In this document: in pieces, positions 2,801 to 29,254 of the stretch
How the letters are laid out: each line of letters begins with the position of its first letter
Numbering within the stretch: the stretch's first letter is position 1
Source of the DNA: Ktedonobacteraceae bacterium
GTDB taxonomy: Bacteria; Chloroflexota; Ktedonobacteria; Ktedonobacterales; Ktedonobacteraceae
Length of the DNA: 36,246 bases
Reading direction: 5' to 3'
NCBI GenBank assembly: GCA_014896635.1
Contig: JADBKA010000016.1
Coordinates: forward strand, 1-36,246
The notes under the pieces: model-generated
Database searches by the model: none
Seen by the model: only the letters and a program-made list of their open reading frames with translations
Told to the model about the DNA's origin: nothing
Program-made: the position numbers and the translations under genes

Positions 2801-3139
2801 TCACCGCTCTTCGTCAAAATCGGCCAGATTTGTATTTTCTTCTGCGAAATACTCATCACTGTAAAAGCCAACATCCCGGCCGACATAGACGCTGACCAGG
2901 AAGTCATCGCGCGGCATATCCGCCGACAGTACGAGATCCTCGTCAATCTGCTCGATCAGCTTCGTCAGTTCCGCCTCTTCTAATTCACGCTCCAGAATCA
3001 GAGTTGCATGGACGGCTGTCGTCGTAAAGTGGATATCGATTGTCCCCAGGCGATTATTCTGAAGGCTGTTCCCTTGCATAATATAATAGCCTTCAGAATA
3101 GGGGGTACGAAAATGGCGTTCAAATCGAATATCTTCCAT
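2801..3139 (-). CDS. conserved-looking acidic protein, unknown function
   Basis: A 112-residue protein, convergent with the response regulator gene. The start ATG at 3139 has AAGGGAG about 5 nt upstream. The sequence has no signal peptide or membrane segment. It has two regular alpha/beta parts (GTIDIHFTTTAVHATLILE and DDFLVSVYVGRDVGFYSDEY) and an acidic tail ending ADFDEER. The opposite strand is also open here (2768-2983), but the minus frame is longer and has the ribosome binding site. No family recognised. Confidence 0.6.
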   Translation of the reverse strand: MEDIRFERHFRTPYSEGYYIMQGNSLQNNRLGTIDIHFTTTAVHATLILERELEEAELTKLIEQIDEDLVLSADMPRDDFLVSVYVGRDVGFYSDEYFAEENTNLADFDEER

Positions 3140-3669
3140 TCTACTCCCTTACGCAGTCGAAACCAGGATTTAAGCTGCGCTCTCCCTTCTCTCCCTTCTC
3201 TCCCAATGCCAACAGCGGGTCGGCTCGCACAACAGGATTATATAGTTCCAAAAAGTCTAGCGATCTCTCGCGTTTGAGAGATTTCCCTTTTTGGGTTTGG
3301 CGGAGAATGACGATCCGCCGTGGATGGACTACCAGCGAGTGAGCGCACCGCCTTCCCATCCTCTACTCCCTAGCTGCGAACAGCAACAGGAGCTACATGT
3401 AAGCACAAGAGGGTCAAACCTCCCTGCCGGAGCGTTTTTCCCCAGGCACCGGACTTTGCCTGGAACCGCTGAAACACTATAAAGGGTCCTTTTAGAAATG
3501 TGCTCAGAGCTATTCTAGCACAGTCAAAAGGCAAGTGTAAAGGGTGCCATGAAACGCTATAAAGGGTCCTTCAAGAGAAGGCCATAAAATCAAACACTAG
3601 TATCTATACCGCTTCTGCAAGCTGGTCAAGAAACCGGTCATACCGCAATTTTTCTGCTGTCATCCCCTT
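3140..3669. other. 530-bp gene-poor stretch with repeats and hairpins
   Basis: No convincing gene is present. The stretch holds a pyrimidine run of three near-identical CTCCCTTCT units (about 3180-3204), a 7-bp hairpin (ATCTCTC/GAGAGAT, 3263-3282), a 6-bp hairpin (GGCGGA/TCCGCC, 3299-3319), a 7-bp hairpin (CCAGGCA/TGCCTGG, 3442-3463) and the 21-bp direct repeats listed separately. A TATAAT facing the 2801-3139 gene occurs near 3237, without a good -35. Confidence 0.6.
3471..3571. repeat. two 21-bp direct repeats 80 bp apart
   Basis: GAAACACTATAAAGGGTCCTT (one base beyond 20 when read to its final T) occupies 3471-3491 and recurs with one change (A to G at its sixth base) at 3551-3571. The core AAGGGTCCTT is nearly palindromic. 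Both copies lie between the zinc-ribbon gene and the 2801-3139 gene, in the likely upstream region of the latter. They may be binding sites for one regulator. Confidence 0.6.
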
Positions 3670-5244
3670 TCACAGGAAGCGGAATGACTGGCGCATCGGC
3701 CCAAAGATGCTTTGCTCAGCATCACTGTAGACGCTCTGTGGCGCCAGCTCTACGAGAGCGAAGAGGCGATTGCCATGCTCAGTTACCAGGATCGTGCAGG
3801 TGTAATTGGCGCCGCTGATCTGCACGTTGCCTTGCGTCTGCTGCCAGGTTGCGCCGGAGAAAGAGAGGGGAGTGCCAGCTTTTGCGTTCGTGACTCCCTG
3901 CTGGGAGACCTGCTGTTGCAGGAATTTATCGACGCTGCTGCCAGCCGCATCGGCTGCTATGAGAGTGAACTGAAAGGCCCGGCTGCTATCATGAAAACGC
4001 ACAGTGGCTTTGTCGCGCTCGATCTGGTACTTCCAACCATTAGGATAGAGTAAGGCAACACGCAGGCCAGTATCCTTGAATTCTACCAGCGGTTTCGTCA
4101 CTTCGGGAACGCTGAAGGGCCGGGCCACGAAGATCCAGGTTCCCGTTCCCAGTAGCACAAGCACAAGGAGAAGTCCCGTCACCAGCAATACGGAAAAGCG
4201 CCGGCCCGTCGTGGCAGGTCGTACCGGCGGCGTGGCCGGCAGTTCAGCCGGTGGCTGATAGGCAGGAGTAAACGGCACATATCCCTGCTGCGGAACGTGT
4301 TCCTGGGCGATTGTCTCATGCTTTCCGGCGACAGCGATGAGAGGAGATGTTTGCTCCTGCTCTGATATTACCGGTGGAACTGCCGCTGACCTTGCGGATT
4401 GCAATGACTGCAAAGGTGTTTCTGCTGTGATTCGCGCATTTTGAGGAGCTACAGGCATCTGTGTCGTGTTCATTTGCGTAATATCACCGGCGTCGGTTTG
4501 CTGCTTTTTCTGCTGATCCTGTTTGTCTCCCGCATCTGCTTTTTTCTGAACAGGAGTAGCCGGATTTTGCTCGCTCTGTTCCTCCAGTTCCACCGCTTCG
4601 ACCAGCAGCGTAGGCCGATCTTCAACCGGGATCTCTTCTCCATCCCCTTCATCCTGTCCTGATGGCGGTTGTTCTGCTCGCACGCTCTCCATCTGCATCG
4701 TCGGCAATTCGTCAAGCGACGCTGAATGCGCAGCAGCGTCTGTTTTTTCTTTTTGCGACTCTGGAGAGCGGGCCGGTGCATTCTGCTCCTGTTTTTTCTC
4801 TTCAGTGCCGCTTGTCTTGATCTGTGGCGAGCGAGCGGGGATCTCGCTTTCAGACGGCATGTCTGTATCACTTGCAGCACGCGCTTCCAGAGGACCGGCA
4901 AGATCCGCCTGACCAGCAACCGAGACATGAGTTAAAGGAGCAGGCCAGGCAGGCCAATCCACATCAATCGTCTGCTCCTCCTCGTTTTTCTGCTCATCGC
5001 TAGCCGAATCATCCGTAGTTTTTTGTGGGGACGAAAAAGGCGGCTGCCGGGCGATCTGCTCTTGCAAAGCAGACCTGGATCTGCTCTGTTCGGGTCGTCG
5101 TATCCTTTGTACAGGAGCAACGGAAGGCTTCTTCAACGCACGGGGGGCCTGAGAATCAGCCGCGAGCGGCATGCCACAATAACTACAAAACTGAGCATCA
5201 TCTCGCGGTATCCTCTGACCACAATGAGAACATTGTACTGGCAC
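3670..5244 (-). CDS. zinc-ribbon, disordered, single-pass membrane protein with PsbP-like C-terminal domain
   Basis: A 524-residue protein starting at a GTG (5244) with AGGAG about 7 nt upstream. Residues 5-25 are a zinc ribbon (CSHCGQRIP then FCSYCGMPL). Residues 30-345 are low-complexity, rich in Q, E, P, S and A, and probably disordered. One membrane helix follows at about 349-374 (FSVLLVTGLLLVLVLLGTG). The last ~145 residues (VEFKDTGLRVALLYPNGW onward) form a compact domain like PsbP/DUF1795 modules. The layout suggests a cytoplasmic zinc-ribbon tail and an extracellular domain. Zinc ribbons joined to long linkers and a membrane helix are frequent in Chloroflexota. No function can be given. 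The gene is followed by the repeat region and faces no obvious operon partner. Confidence 0.75.
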   Translation of the reverse strand: MPVQCSHCGQRIPRDDAQFCSYCGMPLAADSQAPRALKKPSVAPVQRIRRPEQSRSRSALQEQIARQPPFSSPQKTTDDSASDEQKNEEEQTIDVDWPAWPAPLTHVSVAGQADLAGPLEARAASDTDMPSESEIPARSPQIKTSGTEEKKQEQNAPARSPESQKEKTDAAAHSASLDELPTMQMESVRAEQPPSGQDEGDGEEIPVEDRPTLLVEAVELEEQSEQNPATPVQKKADAGDKQDQQKKQQTDAGDITQMNTTQMPVAPQNARITAETPLQSLQSARSAAVPPVISEQEQTSPLIAVAGKHETIAQEHVPQQGYVPFTPAYQPPAELPATPPVRPATTGRRFSVLLVTGLLLVLVLLGTGTWIFVARPFSVPEVTKPLVEFKDTGLRVALLYPNGWKYQIERDKATVRFHDSSRAFQFTLIAADAAGSSVDKFLQQQVSQQGVTNAKAGTPLSFSGATWQQTQGNVQISGANYTCTILVTEHGNRLFALVELAPQSVYSDAEQSIFGPMRQSFRFL

Positions 5245-9135: not shown

Positions 9136-9501
9136 GTGGAAAAGCACGCGATTGTACACCTGGACATCCCGGCGGGCGATCCGGCGGCGGCGAGCAAATT
9201 CTACGGCGATCTGTTTGGTTGGAACATCGCAGTAGATAAGAGCTACGATTACTACATGTTCCGACCTGAACAGGGACCCGGCGGCGGCTTCGTCAAGGCC
9301 GGTGAGGGTGAGATGGACTACAAGGTTGGCGAGGTGTTGATCTACGTTTCGACCGACGACATCGACGCCACGCTTGCCAGGGTTGAGGAGCTTGGCGGTA
9401 AGACACTGGCACCCAAAACCGCTATCCCCGGCGTCGGGGCGTTTGCCTTCTTCGCCGACCCGGCGGGCAACCGCATCGGCCTCTTTACGGGCAATGTCTG
9501 A
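9136..9501 (+). CDS. VOC-family (glyoxalase/bleomycin-resistance fold) protein
   Basis: A 121-residue single-domain vicinal-oxygen-chelate protein. It starts HAIVHLDIPAGDPAAASKFY, the usual first beta-alpha unit, and ends in the second module with VGAFAFFADPAGNRIGLF. GTG start at 9136 has AAAAGGAG about 8 nt upstream. The family covers lyases, dioxygenases and binding proteins, so no substrate can be given. Two of the usual metal positions (a histidine early in each half and an acidic residue late) are only partly visible: H in VHLDI is present. The last two codons and the TGA stop lie inside a dispersed repeat (9494-9627). It is divergent from and promoter-linked to the P450 operon. Confidence 0.9.
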   Translation: MEKHAIVHLDIPAGDPAAASKFYGDLFGWNIAVDKSYDYYMFRPEQGPGGGFVKAGEGEMDYKVGEVLIYVSTDDIDATLARVEELGGKTLAPKTAIPGVGAFAFFADPAGNRIGLFTGNV

Positions 9502-9627
9502 TACTCCCTTGCGTTCAGATGGGCAAGATGCGCCAGCATCTTGCCAGTCCCGCCGGTGGCGGGACGGATCTCGAACGGCTATCAAGATTTCATACCAGGT
9601 TGCTTCTCTGGAAGCAACCTGGTATGA
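9494..9627 (+). repeat. dispersed three-hairpin repeat, copy A
   Basis: About 134 bp, some 86% identical to the complement of 28519-28651. Three hairpins follow in order: GGCAAGATGC/GCATCTTGCC with a 4-nt loop; GTCCCGCC/GGCGGGAC with a 3-nt loop; and CATACCAGGTTGCTT/AAGCAACCTGGTATG. It begins at ATG 9494 and overlaps the glyoxalase stop codon. No transposase is encoded. It may be a MITE- or REP-like element or a 3'-end RNA structure. Confidence 0.85.
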
Positions 9628-9666
9628 TAGCTCCACCTGGGGTGTGATCCGCTGTTAATAACAAGA

Positions 9667-9701
9667 AGCGAGAAGAGAGCAAGAAATGCCCTCTTCTCGC
9701 T
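9667..9701. terminator. 11-bp perfect hairpin between convergent genes
   Basis: AGCGAGAAGAG (9667-9677) pairs with CTCTTCTCGCT (9691-9701), loop 13 nt. It stands between the glyoxalase gene and the minus-strand winged-helix gene ending at 9765, where a bidirectional terminator is expected, but lacks a T-run. Confidence 0.5.
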
Positions 9702-9764
9702 GACAGTTGTAGCTGTTTGTCGCTCTTCCCAGACGATTTTCTCTGGTCTAAACCTGAAAGACTG

Positions 9765-27509: not shown

Positions 27510-28505
27510 ATGTCAGATGCCTCTTCCCGCACGTCCCAGGCGCGGCGCTTCGATGGCCGGGCCGCGCTTTCGCTCACGATCACGTTGCTTTTCTGGGCCT
27601 CGGCCTTCGCCGGTATTCGTGCCGGCCTGCAAGGCTACTCTGCGGGAGCACTCGTGCTTTTTCGTTTCCTCATCGCCTCTGCCGCCCTGCTGATCTACGC
27701 ACTGATTACCCACATGCGCCTGCCGGATCTGCGTGATCTGCCCGCCATGTTCCTGCTCGGTCTTATTGGTATCACAGGCTACCAGGTCAGCCTGACATTT
27801 GGCGAACTGAGCGTCTCCGCCGGCACCGCCAGCTTTCTGGTCGCATCCGTTCCCTGCTTCACTGCACTGCTGGCGCTGTTCTTCTTGAAGGAACGCCTCA
27901 GCGTGTGGGGATGGCTCGGCATCATTATCAGCTTTCTGGGCGTTGCGCTTATCTCCTCCGGTAGTGGCGGCGGCTTCAGCTTCACGCCCGGTGCGCTGCT
28001 GGTGCTGCTGGCTTCACTTTCTGAAAGTTTTTATTTCATCGCACAAAAACGCTATATGCGGAAATATAACGCTCTCCAACTTGCCGCCTATACGATGTGG
28101 ACCGGCACCTTCTTTACGCTGGTCTTCACGCCGGAGATGATACAACAGATACCGCTGGCTCCTCTGCCGTCCACGCTCTCTATCGTCTACCTGGGTATTT
28201 TCCCGGCGGCTATCGCCTATGTGACCTGGGCTTTTACTCTGTCGCGTATGCCGGCTTCCATCGCTACCAGCTTCCTGAATATCTCGCCGGTGCTCGCGCT
28301 ACTGATCTCCCTGGTCTGGTTAAACGAGATCCCAACCTGGCTGGAACTGGGCGGCGGGCTGGTCGTGATTATCGGGGTGCTGATCGTCAATACACGCGGG
28401 AAGATTCCCGTAGCCGCCCCGCCACAAACTCGCGGAGAGCCAGATATCACGACTCACCCGGTGAGTACAGGCGGACAAAACACTTCCCTGAACGCACAGC
28501 AGTAG
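27510..28505 (+). CDS. EamA/DMT-family transporter
   Basis: A 331-residue membrane protein with about ten hydrophobic segments arranged as two EamA repeats (ITLLFWASAFAGIRAGLQGY opens the first; FYFIAQKRYMRKYNALQLAA opens the second). This family exports or takes up small metabolites; no substrate can be assigned. AAAGGA precedes the ATG by about 9-10 nt. A polar tail (TRGEPDITTHPVSTGGQN) follows the last helix. The stop is 14 bp before copy B of the dispersed repeat. The 160 bp upstream contain a GAGCG/CGCTC hairpin near 27466-27485 but no clear promoter. Confidence 0.92.
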   Translation: MSDASSRTSQARRFDGRAALSLTITLLFWASAFAGIRAGLQGYSAGALVLFRFLIASAALLIYALITHMRLPDLRDLPAMFLLGLIGITGYQVSLTFGELSVSAGTASFLVASVPCFTALLALFFLKERLSVWGWLGIIISFLGVALISSGSGGGFSFTPGALLVLLASLSESFYFIAQKRYMRKYNALQLAAYTMWTGTFFTLVFTPEMIQQIPLAPLPSTLSIVYLGIFPAAIAYVTWAFTLSRMPASIATSFLNISPVLALLISLVWLNEIPTWLELGGGLVVIIGVLIVNTRGKIPVAAPPQTRGEPDITTHPVSTGGQNTSLNAQQ

Positions 28506-28518
28506 CTCTCTTCGCACC

Positions 28519-28651
28519 TCATCCCATGTTGCTTCTCTGAAAGCAATATGGGATGAAATCTTGATAGCCGTCGAGATCCGTCCCGCCGGTGGGGGGACGG
28601 GCAAGATGCTTGCGCATCTTGCCCATCTGAACGCAAGGGAGTATCAGCCAT
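28519..28651 (-). repeat. dispersed three-hairpin repeat, copy B
   Basis: About 133 bp on the minus strand, running from an ATG at 28651, aligned throughout to 9494-9627 with about 17-18 substitutions and one deletion. First hairpin: GGGCAAGATGC/GCATCTTGCCC closed by GCAA, a GNRA-type tetraloop. The third hairpin keeps pairing through compensating changes relative to copy A. It lies 14 bp past the EamA stop, in opposite orientation to that gene. Confidence 0.85.
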
Positions 28652-28660
28652 CTACAAAGA

Positions 28661-28707
28661 AACAACGAGCGGTAATCCCAAAAGCTTCTGGATTATCACT
28701 CGTTGTT
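28661..28707. terminator. long bidirectional hairpin between EamA and copper-chaperone genes
   Basis: Bases 28661-28678 and 28690-28707 pair over 18 positions with one mismatch and one G-U, starting AACAACGAG/CTCGTTGTT, around an 11-nt loop. It stands 37 bp past the minus-strand copper-chaperone stop and between convergent genes. There is no T-run, but stem length and position fit a terminator. Confidence 0.7.
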
Positions 28708-28743: not shown

Positions 28744-28962
28744 CTATTTCGCAACGCTATAACCGGCCTCGTCGAGGGCGCTCTCGATCTGTTGCAGCGA
28801 GACCTGAGCCGGATGAAATCGTACATGCACCGTTTTCGTCTGAAGGTCGGTCCGCACATTCTCCACACCGGGCAGACCACCCACCGCGCTACCAACCGCT
28901 TTCACACAATGCTCACAACTCACATCAGGTACTGACAGCACAACATCCTGAGTATCTACCAT
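28744..28962 (-). CDS. copper chaperone (HMA domain, CopZ-like)
   Basis: A 72-residue heavy-metal-associated domain with the metal site VSCEHC (C16, C19). It carries Cu(I) in the cytoplasm and passes it to an exporting ATPase. The usual methionine two residues before the first cysteine is replaced by valine (DVSCEHC). ATG 28962 has AAGGAG about 7 nt upstream and excludes the longer in-frame start at 29007. It follows the CsoR gene by 22 bp in one operon. A CopA ATPase gene is not in the window. Confidence 0.95.
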   Translation of the reverse strand: MVDTQDVVLSVPDVSCEHCVKAVGSAVGGLPGVENVRTDLQTKTVHVRFHPAQVSLQQIESALDEAGYSVAK

Positions 28963-28984
28963 CTTAAAACTCCTTATGCGACAA

Positions 28985-29254
28985 TTAGCGATTACCGGCA
29001 ATGTCATACAACTGGACCAGCTCGCGGATCACCTCTTCTTCACGGTTCCCCTTGATGCCTTCCGGCACACAGGTCTGCAAATGGCCCTCTAGCACGATCC
29101 GCTCCAGCTTCTCCAGCGACTTGCGCACAGCGTAGGTCTGGCGCAAGATGTCAACGCAATACTTGTCCTCTTCCACCATCTTGCGGATACCAGCCACATG
29201 GCCTTCTATATAAGAGAGTCGTTTCAAGACATCTTTACGACGGTCTTCCTGCAT
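28985..29254 (-). CDS. csoR: CsoR-family copper-sensing repressor
   Basis: An 89-residue DUF156 protein, all alpha-helical. The ligand set C33 (DKYCVDIL), H58 and C62 (EGHLQTCV) is complete, which matches copper-sensing CsoR rather than the RcnR or FrmR subgroups, which carry an extra N-terminal histidine or lack one of these. Apo-protein binds the operator overlapping the promoter at 29317-29346 and releases it when Cu(I) is bound, derepressing itself and the chaperone. Start ATG 29254 is used. It is one of the best-supported calls here. Confidence 0.95.
   Translation of the reverse strand: MQEDRRKDVLKRLSYIEGHVAGIRKMVEEDKYCVDILRQTYAVRKSLEKLERIVLEGHLQTCVPEGIKGNREEEVIRELVQLYDIAGNR

What the first reader, a model, noticed from the sequence alone, without database searches (positions are those of the whole stretch)
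9494..9627. A 134-bp repeat with three hairpins, two copies 19 kb apart in opposite orientation
Copy A (9494-9627, plus) and copy B (28519-28651, minus) align end to end at about 86% identity. Each holds three hairpins in the same order. In the third, two base pairs change on both sides together: A-T in copy A becomes C-G in copy B (CATACC/GGTATG to CATCCC/GGGATG), and G-C becomes T-A in CCAG/CTGG to CCAT/ATGG. Compensation implies selection for a folded form. The first hairpin in B is closed by GCAA. Both copies start at an ATG (M[S/A]DTPLRSDGQDA in that frame) and lie at gene 3' ends, A overlapping a stop codon. No transposase is in the window. This may be an undescribed REP/MITE-like or 3'-UTR RNA family.
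Basis: partly seen in the sequence, partly recalled or inferred. Interest (0 to 1): 0.78.

Follow-up and report, generated by a model that had tools for sequence, protein, structure and literature searches.

The report
Repeated three-hairpin element with flipped loops
A bacterial DNA contig holds two copies of a 134-base element made of three hairpins, and the loops of two hairpins are turned round between the copies, which suggests that copying errors in DNA, not selection on an RNA, made the matching changes that first looked like RNA conservation.

Summary
Copy A (9494-9627, +) and copy B (28519-28651, -) align end to end: 116 of 134 columns identical, one of the 18 differences a gap. Both carry three hairpins; two pairs of the third change on both sides. 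All four folded strands beat their shuffles.

"Compensation implies selection for a folded form" is not supported. Homogenised arms plus an inverted spacer are the published mark of template switching at inverted repeats (PMC8604942 abstract start; PMC8794818 passages). Both double changes are transversions, which no G-U intermediate can bridge. The copies share no reading frame throughout.

Best explanation: a non-autonomous DNA-hairpin repeat that landed at gene ends between convergent genes, plausibly moved in trans by an IS200/IS605-type enzyme (inferred). It fails defining features of tagged REPs and of TIR/TSD MITEs. Family size is unknown: no host genome is held, and none of 15 genome-collection or 8 viral-contig pattern hits is a further copy.

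The parts
9494..9627 (+). copy A of the three-hairpin element
28519..28651 (-). copy B of the three-hairpin element
9521..9546 (+). hairpin 1 of copy A (10 pairs and an outer G.A mismatch; loop GCCA, not inverted relative to B)
9547..9565 (+). hairpin 2 of copy A (8 pairs, loop GGT at 9555-9557)
9590..9627 (+). hairpin 3 of copy A (17 pairs, loop TCTG at 9607-9610)
28599..28624 (-). hairpin 1 of copy B (11 pairs, loop GCAA)
28580..28598 (-). hairpin 2 of copy B (one C.C mismatch; loop ACC at 28588-28590, the reverse complement of A's loop)
28519..28556 (-). hairpin 3 of copy B (two compensated pairs, one A.C mismatch, one T.G wobble; loop CAGA at 28536-28539, the reverse complement of A's loop)
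9136..9501 (+). glyoxalase/VOC-family ORF whose stop codon (9499-9501) lies in copy A
9667..9701 (-). terminator-like hairpin facing the other way, beyond copy A, on the side of the convergent minus-strand genes
28661..28707 (-). inverted repeat, terminator-like by eye, between the small ORF 28744-29007 (-) and copy B
   Evidence: the T-rich tail is read; the consensus scan did not list it
27510..28505 (+). EamA-like transporter gene, convergent on copy B, ending 13 bp before it

Best explanation
This is a short, non-autonomous, non-coding interspersed element that works as DNA. It was copied to two places between convergent genes, in one case supplying the very end of a coding frame. When single-stranded (lagging strand, or a transposition intermediate) its three palindromes fold into hairpins. 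An enzyme encoded elsewhere most plausibly recognises these; the anatomy (terminal or subterminal hairpins, no terminal inverted repeats, no target duplication) fits an IS200/IS605-type Y1 HUH transposase acting in trans. The same hairpins make polymerase switch templates between arms: a mutation in one arm is copied to the other, which looks like compensation, and the loop is turned round. Shown: two copies, three hairpins, two exactly inverted loops, two double transversions, a frame shift between the copies, no TIR or TSD found. Inferred: mobility, the class of enzyme, and the step at which the switch happens.
For: Loops 2 and 3 of B are the exact reverse complements of A's loops (GGT/ACC, TCTG/CAGA); 29 of 200,000 trials with random loop letters reach two such loops, and none reaches three. 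Comparing B with the inverted A hairpin lowers mismatches from 4 to 1 (hairpin 2) and from 10 to 6 (hairpin 3); hairpin 1 rises from 2 to 5, so it is not inverted. Differences by region: loops 8 of 11, stems 8 of 72, spacers 2 of 51; loop versus spacer Fisher p 2e-6. PMC8604942 (abstract start) states that template switching between non-identical inverted repeats homogenises the arms and inverts the spacer. PMC8794818 (passages) lists multiple compensatory stem changes and fully inverted loops as expected footprints. The two copies lie beside different genes, between convergent genes. In the 22-row alignment the glyoxalase ORF has a short tail of its own where relatives have various others, and its stop comes from the element. 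Both strands fold well, as a DNA palindrome should. In Ktedonobacter racemifer, a possible relative, 601 transposase genes are reported and COG0675 is called by far the most frequent over-represented COG (PMC3236041 passages); that this is the TnpB/OrfB group of IS605-type elements is recalled.
Against: Only two copies are known, and mobility is not shown: no empty site, no transposase among the 30 ORFs scanned, no common target motif (left flanks GGCA and GTAG). If gaps are allowed, the direct reading of hairpin 3 costs 8 edits against 6 for the inverted one, a smaller advantage than without gaps. Hairpin 1 shows no inversion. Three variable stem pairs are unpaired in one copy, so later point changes must be assumed. 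Stems do not differ significantly more than spacers (Fisher p 0.19). The closest glyoxalase relative, P0003, ends two residues before this ORF, so the C-terminus need not have been cut by an insertion. The host genome could not be searched.
Confidence: 0.66

Rival explanations
1. A structured RNA family: a 3'-UTR element or small RNA kept by selection on the fold, for example protecting mRNA 3' ends from exonucleases.
For: Very stable folds; both copies follow genes on their own strand; two compensated pairs, above the random-substitution expectation (0.4-0.9% of trials).
Against: No Rfam family reaches its gathering score in the window. At E up to 10 the two copies give 20 matches, all far below cut-off, 13 of them microRNA families; the bacterial ones are naRNA4, THF-II, Acido-1 and DUF3800-XI. 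Two loops are inverted, and 3 of 6 variable pairs are unpaired in one copy. The antisense strand folds as well. No sigma-70-like promoter was found within about 100-200 bp (other promoter types not covered). Copy B lies behind an inverted repeat that looks like a terminator. The covariation control is not significant.
Confidence: 0.17
2. A compound bidirectional transcription-termination or attenuation module placed between convergent genes.
For: Both copies lie between convergent genes and have strong stems on both strands.
Against: The terminator scan lists no site within either copy, and no T-run follows any of the three stems. The terminator-like sites near the copies are separate hairpins (9667-9701; 28661-28707). 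The conserved spacers have no role in this reading.
Confidence: 0.1
3. A small coding unit (M[S/A]DTPLRSDGQDA...).
For: Both copies start at an ATG and are open (54 codons from the ATG in A, 65 in B).
Against: The 1-base indel at column 81 changes the frame between the copies. The protein search with B's ORF found no candidate sharing three words, and a search with four of the six frames joined scored none of 152 candidates at E up to 10. Both searches see only proteins of 0.55 to 1.75 times the query's length.
Confidence: 0.02

Closest known systems
Template-switch mutation at inverted repeats (PMC8794818, passages; PMC8604942, abstract start)
   Same: Arms homogenised on both sides and loops inverted in place.
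   Different: The passages and abstract seen treat RNA genes (bacterial ones among them) and yeast coding sequence; here the change is seen between two dispersed copies of one bacterial repeat.
REP / REPIN elements with RAYT transposases (PMC2817692 and PMC3733652, passages; PMC3116915, search listing)
   Same: Palindromic repeats between genes; GTAG-tagged repeats are reported from Chloroflexi among other phyla (PMC3733652 passage).
   Different: 134 bp with three unlike hairpins instead of 20-40 bp; no unpaired GTAG/GTGG or CGTC head shared by the copies; no RAYT among the 30 ORFs scanned.
IS200/IS605-type elements and their non-autonomous derivatives (PMC6006769, abstract start; the rest recalled)
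   Same: Hairpins at or near the ends, no terminal inverted repeat, no target duplication.
   Different: No Y1 transposase seen, and no common target tetranucleotide in the two flanks.
TIR-type MITEs such as Correia and RUP (named in a passage of PMC2817692; their structure recalled)
   Same: Short, non-autonomous, dispersed.
   Different: No terminal inverted repeats and no target-site duplication found here.

Membership tests
REP (GTAG or CGTC tagged) | GT(A/G)G or CGTC head, unpaired, next to the palindrome | tested here: not met
   No such head adjoins hairpin 1 or 3 in either copy. CGTC occurs at hairpin 2 of B only, mostly inside the paired stem; A has AGTC there. GTAG directly precedes copy B but not copy A, and 27 nt away from hairpin 1 (read; definition).
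REP (GTAG or CGTC tagged) | 20-40 bp palindrome | tested here: not met
   134/133 bp with three unlike hairpins (size from the abstract start)
REP (GTAG or CGTC tagged) | high copy number (usually over 100 per genome) and a RAYT gene | not testable with these tools
   no host genome held; no RAYT among 30 ORFs scanned
TIR-type MITE | terminal inverted repeats | tested here: not met
   no exact match of 6 nt or more between the 45-nt end stretches of either copy; imperfect repeats were not scored
TIR-type MITE | target-site duplication | tested here: not met
   longest direct repeat within 20 nt of the ends is 5 nt in A (TGATA, one copy inside the element, absent as such from B) and 4 nt in B
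IS200/IS605-derived element | terminal or subterminal hairpins, no TIR, no TSD | tested here: met
   weak, as other elements can look the same
IS200/IS605-derived element | common target/cleavage oligonucleotide and a Y1 transposase with matching ends | tested here: inconclusive
   left flanks GGCA (A) and GTAG (B) differ; no transposase among 30 ORFs scanned; exact ends unknown without an empty site
Template-switched inverted repeat | spacer (loop) inversion | tested here: met
   2 of 3 loops exactly inverted; hairpin 3 by 6 against 8 edits if gaps are allowed
Template-switched inverted repeat | arm homogenisation | tested here: inconclusive
   2 pairs changed on both sides by transversions, but 3 variable pairs are unpaired in one copy and 1 is a wobble; with two sequences selection cannot be excluded
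Rfam RNA families | score at or above the gathering threshold | tested here: not met
   0 matches in the window
Structured RNA family | significant covariation in a wide set | not testable with these tools
   only two copies available; with these, 122 of 500 shuffles reach the observed value

The most novel reading that the evidence does not exclude
An undescribed single-strand-mobile repeat family of a Ktedonobacteria-like bacterium whose hairpins flip and homogenise by template switching when the element is copied, so that the apparent RNA covariation within the family is wholly a by-product of DNA movement. If general, this would make covariation tests unreliable for repeat-derived RNA candidates.
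Probability: 0.3. Interest if true: 0.6.

Novelty: new member of a known kind. Interest (0 to 1): 0.38.

Why it matters
Compensatory base changes are usually taken as the best sign of a functional RNA. This pair is a compact example in which the loops point to a DNA copying process that can produce the same signal. It gives a simple check, whether the loops are inverted, for any repeat-derived RNA candidate. If the family proves large, its copies could be used to measure hairpin flipping in a bacterium.

Tried and rejected
Search for further copies. An 18-base exact pattern in genome contigs gave 15 stretches, where about 7.5 are expected by chance (my arithmetic from the stated collection size). 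None of the 15 continues: their best matches to the copies stop at 18-20 nt, or 30 nt at 90% in L010 (best 40 rows shown). Six viral-contig scans gave 1, 0, 0, 0, 3 and 4 stretches. None of these 8 is a copy; L018 and L019 share only a hairpin-1-like stretch of 28 nt. Copy A alone was compared with plasmids (1 record, 29 nt, E 0.3) and phages (no match), and with one Thermomicrobium plasmid (14 matches, best E 1.3, chance level). A plasmid search with the AAA-domain protein of the window served only to look for a related record. A covariance model from the two copies, run over the window and 23 of the 24 loci (L017 left out), gave the two copies; reverse-strand matches at their own palindromes, one of which (9590-9716, 44.4 bits) runs on over the neighbouring terminator-like hairpin; and matches of 13.7 bits or less in the loci. 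Exact patterns miss diverged relatives, so this bounds close copies only.

The coding reading and Rfam membership were tested and rejected. Seven paper searches on Ktedonobacteria repeats, MITEs, REPs and template switching list no title or abstract start that describes this element. Four papers were opened, for passages only (PMC8794818, PMC3733652, PMC3236041, PMC2817692); none was read whole. The tagged-REP and TIR-MITE labels were rejected on their defining features.

Full report
Observation. MAFFT gives 134 columns with 116 identical, 17 substitutions and one gap (columns listed). Blast of either copy against the window shows only the pair and matches at their own palindromes (best 14 rows). 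All four strands fold better than each of 200 shuffles. Against 300 random 134-mers of the window, A is lower than all and B's sense strand (-60.7) lies among the lowest (lowest -62.1). The element is real and not a chance similarity.

Hairpins. Hairpin 1 (columns 28-53), hairpin 2 (54-72) and hairpin 3 (97-134) hold 36 pairs. Six vary: two change on both sides, three are unpaired in one copy, one becomes a wobble. Under random substitution two or more compensated pairs arise in 0.4-0.9% of trials. The tool's own shuffle control is reached in 122 of 500 shuffles. So the covariation is suggestive, not established.

Loop 2 is GGT in A and ACC in B; loop 3 is TCTG in A and CAGA in B: exact reverse complements, in place, while the spacers on either side keep their direction. 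Comparing B with the inverted A hairpin removes three of four mismatches in hairpin 2 and four of ten in hairpin 3; hairpin 1 gets worse (2 to 5), so it was not turned. With gaps allowed hairpin 3 still prefers the inverted form, but by 6 against 8 edits only. With random loop letters, two such loops appear in 29 of 200,000 trials.

Meaning. [quoted passage not shown] It has been proposed as a source of compensatory changes in RNA genes, with fully inverted loops named among its footprints. That work found compensatory changes with loop inversion extremely rare, and counted 69 loop clusters consistent with inversion alone, two bacterial ones being figured (PMC8794818, passages). Here both double changes are transversions (A-T to C-G, G-C to T-A), which cannot pass through a G-U pair. 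Read this way the 18 differences reduce to about nine point or indel events and two template switches; this count is my inference. Spacers differ at 2 of 51 positions and stems at 8 of 72, which is not a significant difference (p 0.19); loops differ at 8 of 11 (p 2e-6 against spacers).

Setting. Copy A overlaps the last codons of a glyoxalase-family ORF and supplies its stop. In an alignment of the ORF with 21 of its 248 other hits, relatives end from two residues before to several after this point with various tails, so insertion at the very 3' end is plausible but not proven. Beyond it lies a terminator-like hairpin facing the opposite way, then a 79-aa minus-strand ORF and a peroxiredoxin gene. 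Copy B lies between an inverted repeat that looks like a terminator, behind two small minus-strand ORFs that look HMA- and CsoR-like (my reading, no profile run), and the convergent EamA-like gene. Both copies are thus between convergent genes, as REP-type repeats often are (recalled).

Taxon. The highest-ranking hit of the glyoxalase ORF that bears an organism name is from a Ktedonobacteraceae MAG at 73% identity (120 of 249 hits listed). No genome is held for the window. In Ktedonobacter racemifer 601 transposase genes are reported, and COG0675 is by far the most frequent of the over-represented COGs named (PMC3236041 passages); that this COG is the IS605 OrfB/TnpB group is recalled.

Further copies. 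None of 15 genome-collection hits and none of 8 viral-contig hits (three more scans found nothing) is a copy; nor is the one plasmid match of copy A, its matches in one Thermomicrobium plasmid, and the phage collection gave none. So no true copy with that exact 18-base core was found in a collection of 84,980 species genomes, whose contigs under 3,000 bases are not held. The element may be confined to the host's lineage.

Membership. Tagged REP: head and size not met, although GTAG happens to precede copy B and GTAG repeats are reported from Chloroflexi. TIR-type MITE: TIR and TSD not found. IS200/IS605-derived: anatomy compatible, enzyme and target site not shown. Rfam: none at the gathering score. 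The fair label is a short non-autonomous hairpin repeat, likely mobile, of unassigned family.

Verdict. Observation confirmed; interpretation partly supported; the selection argument gives way to a DNA mechanism that fits the loops better. Interest is modest because only two copies can be seen.

Noticed in passing
window 3470-3576: Two direct repeats of 27 nt (89% alike, start to start 80 nt; TGAAAC.CTATAAAGGGTCCTT) in a roughly 530-bp stretch between the minus-strand ORF 2801-3139 and the zinc-ribbon ORF 3670-5244 (-); perhaps operator or promoter repeats.
   Followed up: no
window 28744-29254 (-): Two overlapping small ORFs that by eye resemble an HMA (CopZ-like) chaperone and a CsoR-type metal repressor, just upstream of copy B (no profile run).
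   Followed up: no
L018:6903-6927 and L019:11566-11590: Viral contigs carry a hairpin close to hairpin 1 of copy B (28 nt, 93%) but nothing else of the element was seen; probably independent hairpins.
   Followed up: partly
L020:10133-10164: The pattern hit lies inside a much longer palindrome in a viral contig, possibly an assembly artefact.
   Followed up: no
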